From assembly GCA_963575645.1 (NCBI GenBank), contig OY754464.1, positions 74,374,948-74,438,947 on the forward strand: 64,000 bases of DNA, given 5' to 3'. Each line of letters starts with the position of its first letter. Position 1 is the stretch's first letter. Shown here piece after piece: positions 7,528 through 54,624 of the stretch. The notes beneath the pieces are model-generated. The model made no database searches and was not told the origin of the DNA. It was given only the letters and a program-made list of their open reading frames with translations. The DNA is from Xanthostigma xanthostigma (Eukaryota > Arthropoda > Insecta > Raphidioptera > Raphidiidae). The position numbers and the translations under genes are program-made.

Positions 7528-7600
7528 CGCCCAACGTGGGGCTCGAACCCACGACCCTTATATTAAGAGTCACGTACTCTACCGACTGAGCCAGCCGGGC
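7528..7600 (-). pseudogene. tRNA-Lys(CTT)-like module
   Basis: The 73-nt minus-strand sequence begins GCCCGGCTGGCTCAGTCGG and ends GGGTTCGAGCCCCACGTTGGGCG-like, with an intact acceptor stem, D-arm, T-arm and B box. The anticodon region GACTCTTAATA reads CTT (Lys), but the anticodon stem no longer pairs. Related modules sit at the same place in the copies at 46099 and 52751. It is therefore a retroelement part and not a free tRNA gene. It could still act as an internal RNA polymerase III promoter. Confidence 0.8.
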
Positions 7601-25657: not shown

Positions 25658-25661
25658 ACAC
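25658..25661. repeat. target site duplication ACAC, left
   Basis: ACAC just outside the left LTR, repeated at 28225-28228. The empty site in the second MITE copy reads CAACAGACACGTTTTGC (59604-59620). Confidence 0.85.
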
Positions 25662-26197
25662 TGAAACGATTAGCTTTGGACTTTTTCGGATAAGCTTACG
25701 TAATCGTCTCGTAATATAATTTAAAATAAATTTTAATAAAATTAATAAACAATTTAAAATATTTATTTTCAATGTTTTATTATGAAATTGTTGTTAACAA
25801 GATATCTTAGAATGTACACACAGAAAATTTCTGATATCTTAATGTGATTGGAATTGACAAAGTGAAAAATAATCAATTAAACGACACATACAAAAAGAAA
25901 TTTGGATCGGTAGATCACCAAGTACTCCAGATTCTCCCTGATGTGGTTTAAAGGAAATATTTCAACACTTTTTCGCAGCTTATTTTTCATACATCCTATT
26001 TCAACCTTTTAAAACTTACTGCCTTTTTTCAGACAAAAAACATATTTTTTTCTTTATTTCACTGCGTCGTTCAACATGCCAAAACCAAAATTGACACGCG
26101 CCGTGACAAAACAAATAGACAAGTACAGTAAATACCCAATTCTAATTATTACCTCTAAACTACGTACAATGTAATATAAAAGTTTTGAATCGTTACA
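25662..26197 (-). repeat. 3' LTR (536 bp)
   Basis: Begins TGTAACGATTC and ends ATCGTTTCA on the minus strand, with AATAAA-type polyadenylation signals in its distal third. It appears identical to 27689-28224. Confidence 0.93.
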
Positions 26198-26200
26198 TAG

Positions 26201-26207
26201 CCCCCCC
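26201..26207 (-). other. short purine run, candidate polypurine tract
   Basis: GGGGGGG followed by CTA directly before the 3' LTR on the minus strand. It is shorter than most polypurine tracts, but the position is right. Confidence 0.45.
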
Positions 26208-26679
26208 AGCGGTTCATACGAACAATTTTTGAATAAAGAAATGCATGGAGGATGAACCGCTTAAATAAATGAGAATTACGTACTACCTGGAATTTTACGA
26301 AGATTTACCACATTGAATAAAATACTAATCTTCGTTTACACGTACTATATAAAATATTTAAAAAAAAACATAAAAATTTCAAAACAATTAAAAAAAAATT
26401 AGTTAATCAATCTTTTCAACTGAAAACAATATAAAATGTTCGAAGAATTTTCAACTATAAAAAAAAACAATTGTGTTTATATTTACTGCAAAGTATAAAA
26501 TAAAGATCTGTGCATCTTCAAAAATAAAATTTAACAAAATTATATCACAATTTATGCACAGTCATAGCGCGTCATAGTAAAATTTAAATATGAACTATGA
26601 CTGTCCATAATTCCGCTTTAAGTTCTTTATGCACCCGATAGGAATGCACATTTACACAAACAATTGACTATCTACTTAG
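26208..26679 (-). other. 3' non-coding part of captured transcript or element
   Basis: AT-rich, between the stop codon of the captured gene and the purine tract. Contains a small inverted repeat around 26560-26605 (GCACAGTCATAGCG / ACTATGACTGT). I cannot tell where the gene's 3' UTR ends and element sequence begins. Confidence 0.5.
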
Positions 26680-27523
26680 TTACTGTTGTTGCAGGGCTTG
26701 CTGATTAGCGTAAAAGGGATTAGGCACTGCTGCGCCCGTATTAGGAGCGAAGTTTTGAGATTGCATCGTTTGTTGAGCTATCACAAATTGATTCTGAGGC
26801 GGCGAAACAAATGTCGATTGGTTTTGAAAAGCTTGCTGCGGTTGCGAGGAAGCTTGCAAGTTTGTCGGATAAACTGGAACTTGAAATGCTTGTTGCTGAA
26901 CTTGAAAGCCAGGAATTGCCCCTGTCGGAGCGTAATTTGCTTGAAATGTGGTTTGTTGCATCGGAGCATTGCCGTATAATGCTAATATGCTATCTTCAGT
27001 TAATTTCGTCTCTTCTTTTTCGGTCGGAGTCGGTTGATTAAAGAAACTTTCTACTTCGCTTTGAACTTTCGCGTTTTCGACACTGGATTTGTCGTCTTCT
27101 TTATCCCAATTTACTTTTGGCAGTGCCGGAGGCACCCATTCTCTGGCGATATACTATTTATGTTCATATTTCGCGCGCACAAATGACTCTAAACTAGAAT
27201 CGTTTGAGAACGCCGGAAATGGTCGGGCAAATTTGCTTCGTAAACAGCCCAAACACGACTGTTGCCCATCTGTTGAGATACATGTCCATTTATCCAGATT
27301 CACTGATTTTACTTTCAAAATATGAACGCCGAGATTTCTATGTATTCCTGCACATCTTATACATAAAAACACACCTATGTTCCACGATGCCCAACGAGGA
27401 TCTTTTGTATCGCAATCGACACAATATTTATTATCCTCATCTCTTAACAAATCATTTAGTACTTGTTGCCATTTGTCCTGAATTTGTTTTGCACGATCTT
27501 TTTTTTTCACTTTTTGTAGTCAT
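26680..27523 (-). pseudogene. SMAP1: intronless SMAP-type ArfGAP copy, frame broken
   Basis: SMAP proteins activate GTP hydrolysis on Arf6/Arf1 and act with clathrin in endosomal traffic. The copy starts at ATG 27523 (MTTKSEK). A run of nine A (27499-27507) then shifts the frame, so only about 20 codons follow. The correct frame resumes from 27510 with DRAKQIQ and an ArfGAP domain. Its zinc finger C-x2-C-x16-C-x2-C (27423-27352) is intact, as are the RCAGIHRNLGVHI segment with the conserved arginine and VKSVNLDKWT. Near 27290 a deletion of 3n+2 bases moves about 30 codons (QQMGNSRVWAVYEANLPD) out of frame. One missing base near 27200 restores it (SSLESF.RAKYEHK). TAG at 27154-27156 replaces a lysine codon before YIAREWVPPALPKVNWDKE. 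The tail (EDSILALYGN, then Q/N/P-rich) is open to TAA at 26680. Total about 280 codons, shorter than usual for SMAPs, so part of the middle, including any clathrin box, is missing. Identification is firm; function as protein is unlikely. Confidence 0.9.
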
Positions 27524-27675
27524 TTTAATAACTTAAATTTTATAATATATAAACAAATTGATTTATAGTTAATTGATTGATATTGATTTAATAATAATTA
27601 TTATTGATATTATTATTAAAATGTCCAAAATGTCACTTGGTATTAGTCTGGATAATTTCCAAGGTCCAGTCTTTT
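27524..27675 (-). other. leader between primer-binding site and captured ORF
   Basis: About 150 bp, very rich in A and T (AATAATAATATC-type repeats near 27590). It may combine retroelement leader and the gene's 5' UTR; the join is not visible. The open frame at 27569-27799 crosses into the LTR and is accidental. Confidence 0.5.
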
Positions 27676-27686
27676 TTCGGGCGCCA
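27676..27686 (-). other. primer-binding site, tRNA-Lys type
   Basis: On the minus strand TGGCGCCCGAA begins two bases after the 5' LTR. It is complementary to the 3' end of eukaryotic tRNA-Lys(UUU), which ends TTCGGGCGCCA. Complementarity falls off after 11 bases. Confidence 0.8.
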
Positions 27687-27688
27687 AA

Positions 27689-28224
27689 TGAAACGATTAG
27701 CTTTGGACTTTTTCGGATAAGCTTACGTAATCGTCTCGTAATATAATTTAAAATAAATTTTAATAAAATTAATAAACAATTTAAAATATTTATTTTCAAT
27801 GTTTTATTATGAAATTGTTGTTAACAAGATATCTTAGAATGTACACACAGAAAATTTCTGATATCTTAATGTGATTGGAATTGACAAAGTGAAAAATAAT
27901 CAATTAAACGACACATACAAAAAGAAATTTGGATCGGTAGATCACCAAGTACTCCAGATTCTCCCTGATGTGGTTTAAAGGAAATATTTCAACACTTTTT
28001 CGCAGCTTATTTTTCATACATCCTATTTCAACCTTTTAAAACTTACTGCCTTTTTTCAGACAAAAAACATATTTTTTTCTTTATTTCACTGCGTCGTTCA
28101 ACATGCCAAAACCAAAATTGACACGCGCCGTGACAAAACAAATAGACAAGTACAGTAAATACCCAATTCTAATTATTACCTCTAAACTACGTACAATGTA
28201 ATATAAAAGTTTTGAATCGTTACA
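27689..28224 (-). repeat. 5' LTR (536 bp)
   Basis: Same length and, as far as I can read, the same sequence as the 3' LTR at 25662-26197. It would hold the promoter of the element. Confidence 0.93.
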
Positions 28225-28228
28225 ACAC
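28225..28228. repeat. target site duplication ACAC, right
   Basis: ACAC directly after the LTR, continuing into GTTTTGCTCTGTGTTTATAT of the interrupted MITE. Confidence 0.85.
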
Positions 28229-45683: not shown

Positions 45684-46412
45684 ACTAGCGGTTCCGCCCG
45701 GTTTCACCCGGGTGCAAAAGAACGAATGAGGAAGGGAGGGACATGAGTACGCACATTCATTTTAGTTTACCGAGATTAATGTTGTGTCCAAATTTCATGA
45801 TGAACGGAGTTACCGTTCAAAAGTTTTTGTCGATAAAAAGCAGTATTTACACTTTTGTTAAGTAATAAATTTATTTTAAATCAATAATTATACTGTAATT
45901 AATAATTAATATAATAAATATTTAATTGAAAACACTGTAGGAAAATTATTTTTATATAGGTACCTATAGTTATAACAGTTTTCAAATGAGCTTTTAATTA
46001 GATTTATTTAATTTTAATTAGTCGTAAATAAAATTAAAATAAATTTAAATGTAAGTCTTAGAAGAAAGTAATATAGAAAATAAAAATAAAAATATATTCG
46101 CCCAACGTAGGGCTCGAGCCCACGACCCTGATATTAACAAACGCACGCTCTACCGACTGAGCCAGCCGGGCTTGTGAATGTGCAACGCTAATATTGGTAT
46201 ATTCAGTTAGGGCATTTCACCTGAATAGAAGCTTATTTTTGAGATACATTTTGCAACATTTTTCATTGATGCTCCGCTCCTATTGGTTGTAGCGTGATAT
46301 TATATAATGTGCTATCCAACAATTTTTTTTTCAATTTGAACCAATAGTTCCTAAGATTAGCGCGTTCAACCAAACAAACAAACTCTTATATATTAATATA
46401 GATTTTAGTGAC
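45684..46412 (+). mobile_element. tRNA-Lys-bearing short retroelement, copy 3
   Basis: Head ACTAGCGGTTCCGCCCGGTT, A/T-rich middle, tRNA-like module at 46099-46171, tail GATGCTCCGCTCCTATTGGT and the end TATATTAATATAGAT. This is the reference for the copy at 6645, which carries the pogo-like insertion. Confidence 0.8.
46099..46171 (-). pseudogene. tRNA-Lys-like module, anticodon lost
   Basis: Same 73-nt frame as 7528-7600. The D arm and B box remain, but the anticodon region (GTTTGTTAATA) no longer reads Lys and its stem is broken. Confidence 0.75.
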
Positions 46413-48059: not shown

Positions 48060-49045
48060 TAATTGGAGTACACTCCTATGTGACATTTACGGAAACGGAA
48101 GTACTCTCCTGTTTGACATGTACGGACCTGAAAGTTAATTCCGTCAATCTTCTAAAAGTTGGCGGCTATACACGTCACTAGATTCTTTGTTAATCATGAT
48201 TGGAATTCCGCTTACGTGAATCGGAGCATACTCCTTCCTGTCCACGTAAATATCATACAGGAGTGAATTGCTACAATTCCACTTGATATGCATTCTTGTA
48301 TGCGTAAATGTCACATCGAAGTGTACTCTCGTTTGCATAAATATTACGTCGAAATGTACTCCCGGTTACGTAAATATTACATTGGAGTGTACTCCCGTTT
48401 GCGTCAATGTCACATCGAAGTGTAGGTACCTACTCCCGTTTTCGTAAATGTCACATCGAACTGTACTCTCGTTTGCGTAAACGTCACATCGAAGTGTACT
48501 CCCGTTTGCGTAAATGTCACATTGAAGTGTAATCCCGTTTGCGTAAATGTCACGTCGAAGTGTACTCCCGTTTACGTAAATATTACGTCGAAATGTACTC
48601 CCGTTTACGTAAATATTACATTGGAGTGTACTCCCGTTTGCGTCAATGTCACATCGAAGTGTAGGTACTCCCGTTTTCGTAAATGTCACATCGAACTGTA
48701 CTCTCGTTTGCGTAAATGTCACATCGAAGTGTACTCCTGTTTGCGTAAATGTTACATTGAAGTGTAATCCCGTTTACGTAAATATTACGTCGAAATGTAC
48801 TCCCGTTTACGTAAATATTACATTGGAGTGTACTCCCGTTTGCGTCAATGTCACATCGAAGGGTAGGTACTCCCGTTTTCGTAAATGTCACATCGAACTG
48901 TACTCTCGTTTGCGTAAACGTCACATCGAAGTGTACTCCCGTTTGCGTAAATGTCACATCGAAGTGTATTTCCGTTTGCGTAAATGTCACATCGGATTGT
49001 ACTCCCGTTTACGTAAATATTACATTGGAGCGTAGTTCAGTTTGG
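48060..49045. repeat. 33-bp minisatellite, about 30 units
   Basis: The unit CGTTTGCGTAAATGTCACAT followed by CGAAGTGTACTCC is 33 bp. Variants (TTACGTAAATATTACGTCGA, TTTTCGTAAATGTCACATCG) alternate in a higher-order pattern marked by GTAGGTAC(CTAC)TCCCGTTTTCG near 48420, 48660 and 48860. The left part (48060-48300) is more diverged. Because 33 is a multiple of three, long frames stay open on both strands (48366-48722, 48522-48767, 48646-49035, 48649-48990, 48848-49078), reading for example VCVNVTSKCTP or RLRKCHIEVYS. No signal peptide or start context supports a gene. Confidence 0.9.
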
Positions 49046-50199
49046 GTAAATTTTTTACAAATCTGCTTCAGTTACTGAAAAAACATGACCATTTAATTAC
49101 AAAATCCAGGATGCAAATCGTGAAATGTGTCATTGGTCCACTGTAGACGGGTAAGTGACGGGTGTTGGTCGTCACGTTTGACACGGCTGTGGTGAAAGAA
49201 CCACAAAATACAGAGAGATACAGAGAGAGAATGGAATCAGTGATGTGTGCACAAACCCGCACTGTGCATAGAGCCGATAGATAAACGACGTGATCCGAGC
49301 GCATTGCGAACCACCAGCATAGAAATAATACTCTCAAGTATTCGCAAGCGTCGCGACGTGAGGCGTCCTTTCTCCCACCGCTGTCACCAGCCTTCCGGCA
49401 ACTGTTGGATTGCTGCGTCGCAAATCGAACGACATTTCATATATATTGTGATTGCATTTGTCAACGTTAATACTGCTTTATTGATCATAACAGTATTATT
49501 TTGCTTATAATAGTTTAATGTTGACTGAAACACCGAATGACGTCACGCCTTCTTAAATTAAAGAGAATATAAACACTTGGAGTAAATAATTACCGTGTCG
49601 CTTAAATTTGTGTTGCGATCATTCACTTCTGCATCATTTATTTAGTTGATTTGTTAAAAAATAGAGAATAGTTACTTCTTACCACAACAAGTTTATTAGT
49701 GGATGTACATTTTTTGTTAGTTGATTTGTTGTTTATTCGTTTTTTTTGTGATATTTTACAAAACTTATGTCGTAGGTTATTTTTGAGGTTAGTTAACTTG
49801 CAACTAAAGAAAGCCATACTAGTTTTACTATTAAATACCTACTTTTACGAAAATAGTTAATATAAATCTTATCATTAAGTAACTTCACATACCATTCTAC
49901 GAAATACCTCTGCACGACATCTCTACACCCATAAATACCGCGTCTCATGTCAGCTGTCACTGAGGCATCACGTCACAAGCGTTTTCGCGATTACTTTAAA
50001 ATAGAAAAATAAAAATGCAATAATTTGCGTTAAAATTTAATTTAATTGCTGAAATAATGTTTTTATTATATAGAATTGGATTTCAAAATCTGTCATCATG
50101 CCTATTGCGTTTGTAAACATTAATATTTAATGATTGATTAATGATTGGAAATAATTTCATCTTTAATTCCCCTACAACTCTCTGTATTTTGAAGGTTCA
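49046..50199. other. no gene seen
   Basis: The open frames at 49068-49337 and 49247-49510 overlap on opposite strands and are unrecognised. A GAGATACAGAGAGA stretch lies near 49210. Confidence 0.5.
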
Positions 50200-54177: not shown

Positions 54178-54624
54178 CTATCGCGATGGTATATATATGA
54201 TATAAAAATGCATAGATTTTATTTTTGTCAAAATCAGTTTTAAGGCATTTATTGCACACCAATCAGAAAGTAAATTTGCTGCAATGTTAGCATCAATTTC
54301 AAGTGAAATAAAATCAATATTTTTGAACACTAAAATAATGTCATCAGCGTACATAAAGGTGGCAGCCACATCGTTAACTGATTGAGGTAAATCATTAATG
54401 TAGAAAAGAAATAGTATTGGTCCAAGTGTTGACCCCTGAGGAACACCCATGTCACACGTCTGAACCTTTGATTTGGTACCATCAATAACCACAATTTGAG
54501 ATCTATTGCACAGGAAAGATTGAATCCAAGTAAAAGCATTCCCTCTGACGCCATATTTGAGAAGTTTGGCAAGCAACAAATCATAATTCACCAAATCAAA
54601 CGCTTTGCTGAGGTCAAAAACATA
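54178..54624 (-). pseudogene. reverse transcriptase fragment, non-LTR retrotransposon
   Basis: The frame is open for about 149 codons after a TGA at 54625-54627. Motif A reads VFDLSKAFDLVNYDLLL with the catalytic Asp, followed by GVRGNAFTWIQSFLCNRSQ. Motif B is GVPQGSTLGPILFLFYINDL and motif C is FMYADDIILVF with the YADD box. These are the palm motifs of LINE-type reverse transcriptases, in the style of the Jockey/CR1 group. Fingers, thumb and endonuclease are missing, and the frame stops at 54178, so this is a truncated copy. It is the only clear retrotransposon enzyme sequence in the window. There is no link to the LTR element at 25662, which would use a different type of polymerase. Confidence 0.88.

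What the first reader, a model, noticed from the sequence alone, without database searches (positions are those of the whole stretch)
25662..28224. LTR retroelement whose interior is a cellular ArfGAP (SMAP) cDNA
Seen: two matching 536-bp LTRs, tRNA-Lys-type primer site, ACAC target duplication, and between them only an intronless SMAP-type gene copy in the sense direction. Known: template switching during reverse transcription can put cellular mRNA into retroelements, but clear cases with both LTRs, primer site and target duplication intact are few, especially in insects. Inference: a mobile, non-autonomous element moved a membrane-traffic gene, and it may exist as a family.
Basis: partly seen in the sequence, partly recalled or inferred. 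Interest (0 to 1): 0.9.

Follow-up and report, generated by a model that had tools for sequence, protein, structure and literature searches.

The report
Jumping element carrying dead gene copy
A virus-like jumping element in what is probably an insect genome swapped its own genes for a copy of a cell's membrane-traffic gene and then spread to dozens of places, apparently using the enzymes of an intact relative, although the carried gene is broken in every copy that was read.

Summary
The window holds an LTR element (25662-28224, read on the minus strand) with two identical 536-bp LTRs, primer site, purine tract and a 4-bp target duplication; its interior is a spliced, internally deleted SMAP (ArfGAP) cDNA.

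The parent gene in the same genome keeps a 350-bp intron that the element lacks exactly. The LTR-end/primer-site pattern occurs 49 times: 46 lead into SMAP cargo (43 insertion places, counting two tandem arrays once each) and 3 into complete Ty3/gypsy elements with open gag and pol. Against those, the cDNA replaced the whole coding region, leaving 25 nt after the 5' LTR and about 118 bp before the 3' LTR.

In 42 readable interiors one stop codon and two large deletions are shared by 42 and each capture-junction string by 41: one capture, cargo dead before the family spread, now varying like the LTR. Of 37 measurable SMAP units 36 have target duplications; the exception is an inner array unit. 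18 of 36 LTR pairs carry no substitution.

So it is a young non-autonomous family, most likely moved in trans. LTR gene capture is known; this is an unusually complete animal variant.

The parts
25658..25661 (.). target-site duplication ACAC, left copy
   Evidence: matches 28225-28228
25662..26197 (-). 3' LTR of the element (element reads on minus strand), 536 bp, TG..CA ends
   Evidence: identical to the other LTR, 0/536 mismatches
26198..26215 (-). purine tract region (CGCTGGGGGGGCTA) directly before the 3' LTR
   Evidence: aligned with the autonomous element
26198..26316 (-). retained retroelement 3' end (about 118 bp), aligned with the last ~10 pol codons plus 3' non-coding of the autonomous element; 110 of 119 alignment columns identical
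26317..27663 (-). captured, spliced SMAP (ArfGAP) cDNA cargo: 5'UTR, coding region, 3'UTR, with internal deletions and premature stop; dead
26316..26318 (-). 3' capture junction (SMAP 3'UTR ...ATTTTATT | CAATGT... retroelement)
   Evidence: same string found in 41 of 42 interiors, not resolved in 1
26690..26692 (-). site of 365-bp deletion relative to parent mRNA, between 9-nt direct repeats
   Evidence: coding part of it in 42 of 42 interiors, 41 with the same start point
26751..26752 (-). site of 183-bp deletion, between 8-nt direct repeats
   Evidence: 42 of 42 interiors
27104..27105 (-). site of 330-bp deletion (1-nt microhomology)
   Evidence: 42 of 42 interiors
27154..27156 (-). premature stop TAG (parent codon 128)
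   Evidence: 42 of 42 interiors
27401..27402 (-). exon-exon junction; the parent's 350-bp intron is absent exactly here
27661..27665 (-). 5' capture junction (retroelement GACTGGA | C CTTGGAAATT SMAP 5'UTR), 25 nt after the 5' LTR
   Evidence: same string in 41 of 42 interiors, 1 with a one-base change
27676..27686 (-). primer-binding site TGGCGCCCGAA
   Evidence: pattern with LTR end occurs 49 times in genome, control 0; tRNA identity not tested
27689..28224 (-). 5' LTR of the element, 536 bp
28225..28228 (.). target-site duplication ACAC, right copy

Best explanation
A Ty3/gypsy LTR retrotransposon packaged, or otherwise met during reverse transcription, a spliced SMAP mRNA. The reverse transcriptase switched templates twice, 25 nt inside the 5' LTR (just past the primer site) and near the end of pol, so the SMAP cDNA replaced gag-pol while the LTRs, primer site, purine tract and about 118 bp of 3' end were kept (inferred from the junctions). 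Jumps within the cargo removed 330, 183 and 365 bp (deletions shown; mechanism inferred). The chimera has the termini needed to be transcribed, primed, reverse-transcribed and integrated by proteins supplied in trans by the autonomous relative (trans-supply inferred). It multiplied into a family with 46 primer-site junctions at 43 insertion places plus many further LTRs (shown). SMAP protein plays no part in the spread seen today: the frame was broken before it (shown). The window copy is one of the youngest by its identical LTRs.
For: Exact intron loss against parent L051. Autonomous relatives L055, L057, L058: gag 385 aa and pol 1402 aa open in 3 of 3; for L055, Pfam finds aspartyl protease, RVT_1, RNase H, Integrase_H2C2, rve, and Ty3_capsid weakly (E 0.0011, below its curated cutoff); the RT piece matches PDB 4ol8 RT/RNase H (4.1e-59; Ty3 by recall) and Ty3-G Gag-Pol 7q5b (1.4e-58) best. 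Element 1-570 and 1910-2563 align to the two ends of the autonomous element; the 26 nt after the LTR agree at 25, the 3' pre-LTR stretch at 110 of 119 columns. Counts: 49 junctions, 46 SMAP and 3 autonomous. TSD in 39 of 40 elements with both LTRs and flanks held (36 of 37 SMAP units, 3 of 3 autonomous); the exception is an inner unit of a tandem array whose outer flanks are GTGC/GTGC. Shared junctions and deletions in 41-42 of 42 interiors; codon-position variation 62/49/58 of 278/277/278 sites (chi-square p 0.46); interior diversity 2.55% (42 interiors) against 5' LTR 2.59% (43 LTRs). 18 of 36 LTR pairs without substitution (3 of these 18 have a one-gap difference). The C11 copy is identical to the window copy over 2036 bp including the whole interior.
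Against: The present autonomous LTRs differ from the SMAP-element LTRs by 12.3% on average, so the direct donor lineage was not found; the helper role is inferred from shared termini, TSD length and recent activity of both. No RNA, VLP or small-RNA data. Microhomology at the switches is short (about 3 nt at the 5' side, with one later change assumed; about 2 nt at the 3' side; my reading), and the 330-bp deletion has 1 nt and the 11-bp deletion 0 nt. Fixed differences from the parent fall 6/2/9 on codon positions 1/2/3; that few cannot exclude a short early phase in which the copy, or only the parent line, was constrained.
Confidence: 0.92

Rival explanations
1. The LTR pair and the SMAP retrocopy are unrelated neighbours: two solo LTRs, or an element nested beside a LINE-type processed pseudogene.
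For: None specific; lone LTRs of this family are common (329 LTR starts against 49 primer junctions).
Against: Same two junction strings in 41 of 42 interiors each, shared TSDs in 36 of 37 measurable SMAP units, no poly(A) tail at the 3' junction.
Confidence: 0.01
2. The family is a domesticated carrier: the element expresses a useful ArfGAP-related product and is kept for it.
For: A 93-aa C-terminal open stretch from an ATG survives in 21 of 25 interiors listed; two of the large deletions (330 and 183 bp) keep the parent frame; fixed differences from the parent lean to third positions (6/2/9).
Against: Stop at codon 128 in 42 of 42 and an 11-bp frameshifting deletion in 41 of 42; longest ATG ORF 59-110 aa; variation among copies equal over codon positions (p 0.46); interior diversity equals LTR diversity.
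Confidence: 0.03
3. Several independent captures of SMAP by the same LTR family.
For: A 303-bp SMAP fragment with the same 330-bp junction but without the 11-bp deletion or the stop sits in two copies of a DNA transposon.
Against: The LTR-flanked interiors read share both capture junctions and the large deletions (41-42 of 42). The transposon fragment fits an earlier stage of the same lineage. The tree was rooted on the parent and so does not test this.
Confidence: 0.04

Closest known systems
LTR-mediated retroposition in metazoans (Tan et al. 2016, Genome Research; paper not held; known here from passages in reviews PMC5408686 and PMC8232201, and recall)
   Same: Spliced host mRNA between LTRs through template switching at microsimilarities; reported for mosquito, zebrafish, chicken and Drosophila (passages of PMC5408686).
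   Different: In the passages seen those are described as retrocopies; here the chimera became a transposing family with 46 primer-site junctions, TSDs, lone LTRs and a co-resident autonomous relative with open frames. I could not check whether the 2016 paper reports amplified cases.
Bs1 retroelement of maize (passages in PMC13317346)
   Same: LTR retroelement carrying pieces of host genes.
   Different: Bs1 carries segments of three genes and gave a chimeric gene that is transcribed and translated; here one mRNA replaced all coding sequence and is dead, in an animal Ty3/gypsy context with the autonomous relative present.
TRIM elements, e.g. PbTRIM of the harvester ant (passages in PMC3532108)
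   Same: Small non-autonomous LTR elements in an insect with PBS, PPT, 4-bp TSD and solo LTRs.
   Different: PbTRIM is 480-781 bp, its interior had no database match, its primer site fits leucine tRNA and no autonomous partner was found; here the interior's origin, the parent and an autonomous relative are identified.
LTR retrotransposons with captured genes in rice and sorghum (abstract start and passages of PMC3726574)
   Same: Captured host genes inside LTR elements, some expanded by further retrotransposition and pseudogenised.
   Different: Plant survey based on annotated genes; the passages seen show no autonomous partner with junctions at base level.

Membership tests
Non-autonomous LTR retrotransposon (Ty3/gypsy-derived) | paired LTRs with TG..CA ends | tested here: met
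   0/536 mismatches in the window copy; 36 SMAP pairs compared, largest difference 2.05%
Non-autonomous LTR retrotransposon (Ty3/gypsy-derived) | primer-binding site and purine tract at the proper ends | tested here: met
Non-autonomous LTR retrotransposon (Ty3/gypsy-derived) | primer site complementary to a host tRNA 3' end | not tested
   search for the host tRNA-Lys gene did not complete; assignment is recalled
Non-autonomous LTR retrotransposon (Ty3/gypsy-derived) | target-site duplication at insertions | tested here: met
   39 of 40 measurable elements of both kinds; lone LTRs 7 of 7 looked at
Non-autonomous LTR retrotransposon (Ty3/gypsy-derived) | no gag-pol of its own | tested here: met
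   window interior is SMAP cDNA plus short retroelement ends; longest ATG ORF 59-110 aa in 42 interiors
Non-autonomous LTR retrotransposon (Ty3/gypsy-derived) | related autonomous element with Ty3-type pol in the genome | tested here: met
   3 copies with open gag and pol; domains tested on one of them
Non-autonomous LTR retrotransposon (Ty3/gypsy-derived) | mobilised in trans by that element | not testable with these tools
   needs expression or VLP data
LTR-mediated retrocopy | intron removed at the parent's splice site | tested here: met
   350-bp intron absent exactly
LTR-mediated retrocopy | junctions with retroelement sequence showing microhomology | tested here: inconclusive
   junctions placed to a few nt; microhomology short, about 3 and 2 nt
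TRIM | very small (under about 1.5 kb), non-coding interior of no known origin | tested here: not met
   2563 bp with host-gene interior; the size limit is recalled

The most novel reading that the evidence does not exclude
The cargo helps the element as camouflage: because about 1.3 kb of its RNA is about 94% identical to a host gene, small RNAs (piRNA/siRNA) aimed at the interior would also hit the SMAP mRNA, so the host tolerates the element or pays with lower SMAP expression. Then it is the likeness to a host gene, not any protein, that favours such chimeras.
Probability: 0.06. Interest if true: 0.85.

Novelty: new variant of a known kind. Interest (0 to 1): 0.62.

Why it matters
It is an unusually complete case of gene capture by an animal LTR retroelement: parent gene, both switch points, autonomous relative, empty target sites and 43 insertion places of descendants lie in one genome. 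If the trans-mobilisation reading holds, LTR + 25 nt with the primer site + about 118 bp of 3' end were enough for repeated transposition in this Ty3/gypsy lineage, so no packaging or other cis signal inside gag-pol can be essential. That makes the minimal cis requirement of such an element, and the question whether small RNAs against it also hit the parent gene, directly testable by observation.

Tried and rejected
Rejected: two independent solo LTRs beside a pseudogene (shared TSD, shared junctions); retained intron (absent exactly); an assembly accident (TSDs at 36 of 37 measurable SMAP units); a selected SMAP protein today (stop 128 in 42 of 42, equal codon-position variation); the three large deletions as introns (by eye I found no GT..AG ends; two of them lie between 8- and 9-nt direct repeats).

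Led nowhere: naming the host species (no TTAGG runs in the ten contig ends read; no eukaryote collection to compare with); exact pattern in viral contigs, 0 matches; papers with LTR retrotransposon + ArfGAP + captured, 0; stromal membrane-associated protein + retrotransposon, 2, unrelated by title and abstract start; Ty3 + packaging + mini-Ty3, 0. That I know no report of this family rests in an open-licence library, seen as listings; passages were read only of PMC13317346, PMC5408686, PMC3532108, PMC8232201 and PMC3726574. One search stopped with an error at its last region; its counts are replaced, except the outer flank of the C6 tandem array. Searches used a splice point one base off; corrected. 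Rows dropped: 4 of 46 SMAP places (three truncated, one with a nested insertion), 10 of 42 interiors whose anchor string was not found.

Full report
Observation. The two LTRs (25662-26197, 27689-28224) are 536 bp and identical, with ACAC on both outer sides. Read on the minus strand, the order is 5' LTR, primer site TGGCGCCCGAA, SMAP-like sequence, purine tract, 3' LTR. The SMAP pieces match Pfam ArfGap (7.8e-29) and the solved ArfGAP domain of human SMAP1 (4.9e-37). Joining the flanks without the element gives a sequence found unoccupied in a high-copy repeat: 24 of 42 listed rows cross the join broadly. It is a genuine insertion.

Parent gene. The window's genome is held (G000, 623 Mb, 28 contigs). 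A protein search aimed at the ArfGAP stretch that is damaged in the element gave 88 matches up to E 10; the best (3.7e-23) lies in C10:36185000-36190500 (L051), a gene with an open 486-aa SMAP frame in two exons (ArfGap 3.5e-42). The element aligns from its position 562 to 1909 and lacks the 350-bp GTGAGT..TTTTAAG intron exactly. Relative to the mRNA it lacks 330, 183 and 365 bp; the last two deletions lie between 8- and 9-nt direct repeats, the first has 1 nt of microhomology. Smaller indels and a stop at codon 128 break the frame.

Autonomous relative. The LTR-end + primer-site pattern (up to 3 mismatches) occurs at 49 places, reversed control 0. 45 of them were matched to a SMAP hit downstream on the same strand; of the other four, one is a truncated SMAP copy and three are complete 6.7-kb elements with 566-bp LTR pairs and gag (385 aa) and pol (1402 aa) open. 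Pol pieces of one copy match aspartyl protease, RT, RNase H and integrase; gag matches Ty3_capsid weakly (0.0011, below its cutoff). The RT piece matches 4ol8 RT/RNase H (4.1e-59; Ty3 by recall) and Ty3-G Gag-Pol (1.4e-58) best. Element positions 1-570 and 1910-2563 align with the two ends of this element. So the SMAP cDNA stands where gag-pol stood: the 5' switch is 25 nt after the LTR, about 12 nt past the primer match; the 3' switch is inside the last codons of pol.

The family. The 46 SMAP junctions lie at 43 insertion places, because one tandem array has three units and one has two. Of the 49 junctions, 40 could be measured with both LTRs and both flanks; 39 show a 4-bp TSD (36 of 37 SMAP, 3 of 3 autonomous). 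The one without is an inner unit of the three-unit array, whose outer flanks agree (GTGC). One of the 36 is the two-unit array measured over its outer LTRs (TSD GACA). The other 9 junctions are truncated, nested, array units, or had an LTR my patterns did not find. 42 interiors could be read (46 less three truncated and one nested): stop 128 in 42, the 330- and 183-bp deletions in 42, the 11-bp deletion in 41, the 5' junction string in 41 (one with a one-base change), the 3' string in 41 (one not resolved). Hence one capture. Among copies, codon positions 1/2/3 vary at 62/49/58 of 278/277/278 sites (p 0.46), and the interior is as diverse as the 5' LTR (2.55% and 2.59%): the cargo is now unconstrained. 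Fixed differences from the parent are 6/2/9, a lean to third positions on small numbers that fits a constrained parent but does not exclude an early constrained phase of the copy. 18 of 36 LTR pairs have no substitution, the largest difference is 2.05%; a copy on C11 is identical to the window copy over 2036 bp. A 30-base LTR-start pattern has 329 places, control 0; taking off two for each of 49 junctions leaves roughly 230, by inference mostly solo or decayed LTRs. 7 of 7 lone LTRs looked at have TSDs.

Age order. Copies differ from the parent by 6.1% (8.3% in UTRs, 4.8% in coding sequence), and from each other by about 2.6%. SMAP and autonomous LTRs differ by 12.3%, the 3' pre-LTR stretch by 8 substitutions. 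The capture is thus older than the present burst, and the autonomous line has since diverged or the donor was a sister line. No absolute dates are given because the species and its rate are unknown.

An earlier fossil. Two copies of a DNA transposon carry a 303-bp SMAP piece with the same 330-bp junction but without the 11-bp deletion or the stop. Fragments of one of them (L052) match TNP-like RNase H transposase domains; the P-element label is recalled. Of 16 sites at which at least 90% of the 32 family rows used (of 42) differ from the parent, these copies share 4 and keep the parent state at 12; they have 9 changes of their own. They look like a side branch from before the family's common ancestor; as the parent's own changes cannot be told apart without an outgroup, this is a reading, not a proof.

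Mechanism. Shown: structure, junctions, single origin, dead cargo, recent insertion, an autonomous relative with open frames. Inferred: template switching between co-packaged RNAs; supply of Gag, RT and integrase in trans; that the short retained ends suffice for packaging and integration.

Comparison. LTR-mediated capture of host mRNA is known from maize Bs1 and, in animals, from Tan et al. 2016 (passages of PMC13317346, PMC5408686, PMC8232201; the 2016 paper itself was not held). Small non-autonomous LTR families are known in ants (PMC3532108 passages), without known cargo origin or partner. This case joins the two: a captured mRNA that became a transposing family. I file it as a new variant of a known kind.

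Noticed in passing
L052 (C10:792800-796800) and L053 (C10:11583700-11587700): DNA-transposon copies (TNP-like RNase H domains found in L052; P-element kinship recalled), 96% alike over about 1.8 kb, carry a 303-bp SMAP fragment with the same 330-bp deletion junction as the LTR family but with the ArfGAP frame open.
   Followed up: partly
C6:31542376-31549454 and C5:23660525-23668147: Tandem arrays LTR-interior-LTR-interior-LTR (three and two units) with one TSD around the whole array; probably unequal recombination between LTRs.
   Followed up: partly
L056 (C5:42319800-42326600), 120-911: SMAP element cut short and followed by an inverted copy of its own LTR start, as an integration into itself would leave.
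   Followed up: no
L055 (C5:16357900-16366900): One autonomous copy sits beside and apparently inside an array of a ~165-bp satellite.
   Followed up: no
window 7528-7600 and 46099-46171, minus strand: Two tRNA-like matches (Rfam tRNA) inside dispersed repeats, probably a tRNA-derived SINE.
   Followed up: no
window 54181-54624, minus strand: Open fragment that looks like a non-LTR reverse transcriptase (by eye, not searched).
   Followed up: no
window 48301-49051: 33-bp tandem repeat array of about 22 units, with long open frames on both strands.
   Followed up: no
contig ends of G000 (L089, L092, L093, L097): T-rich (or on the other strand A-rich) tandem repeats of about 20 bp at four of the ten contig ends read, and no TTAGG runs.
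   Followed up: no
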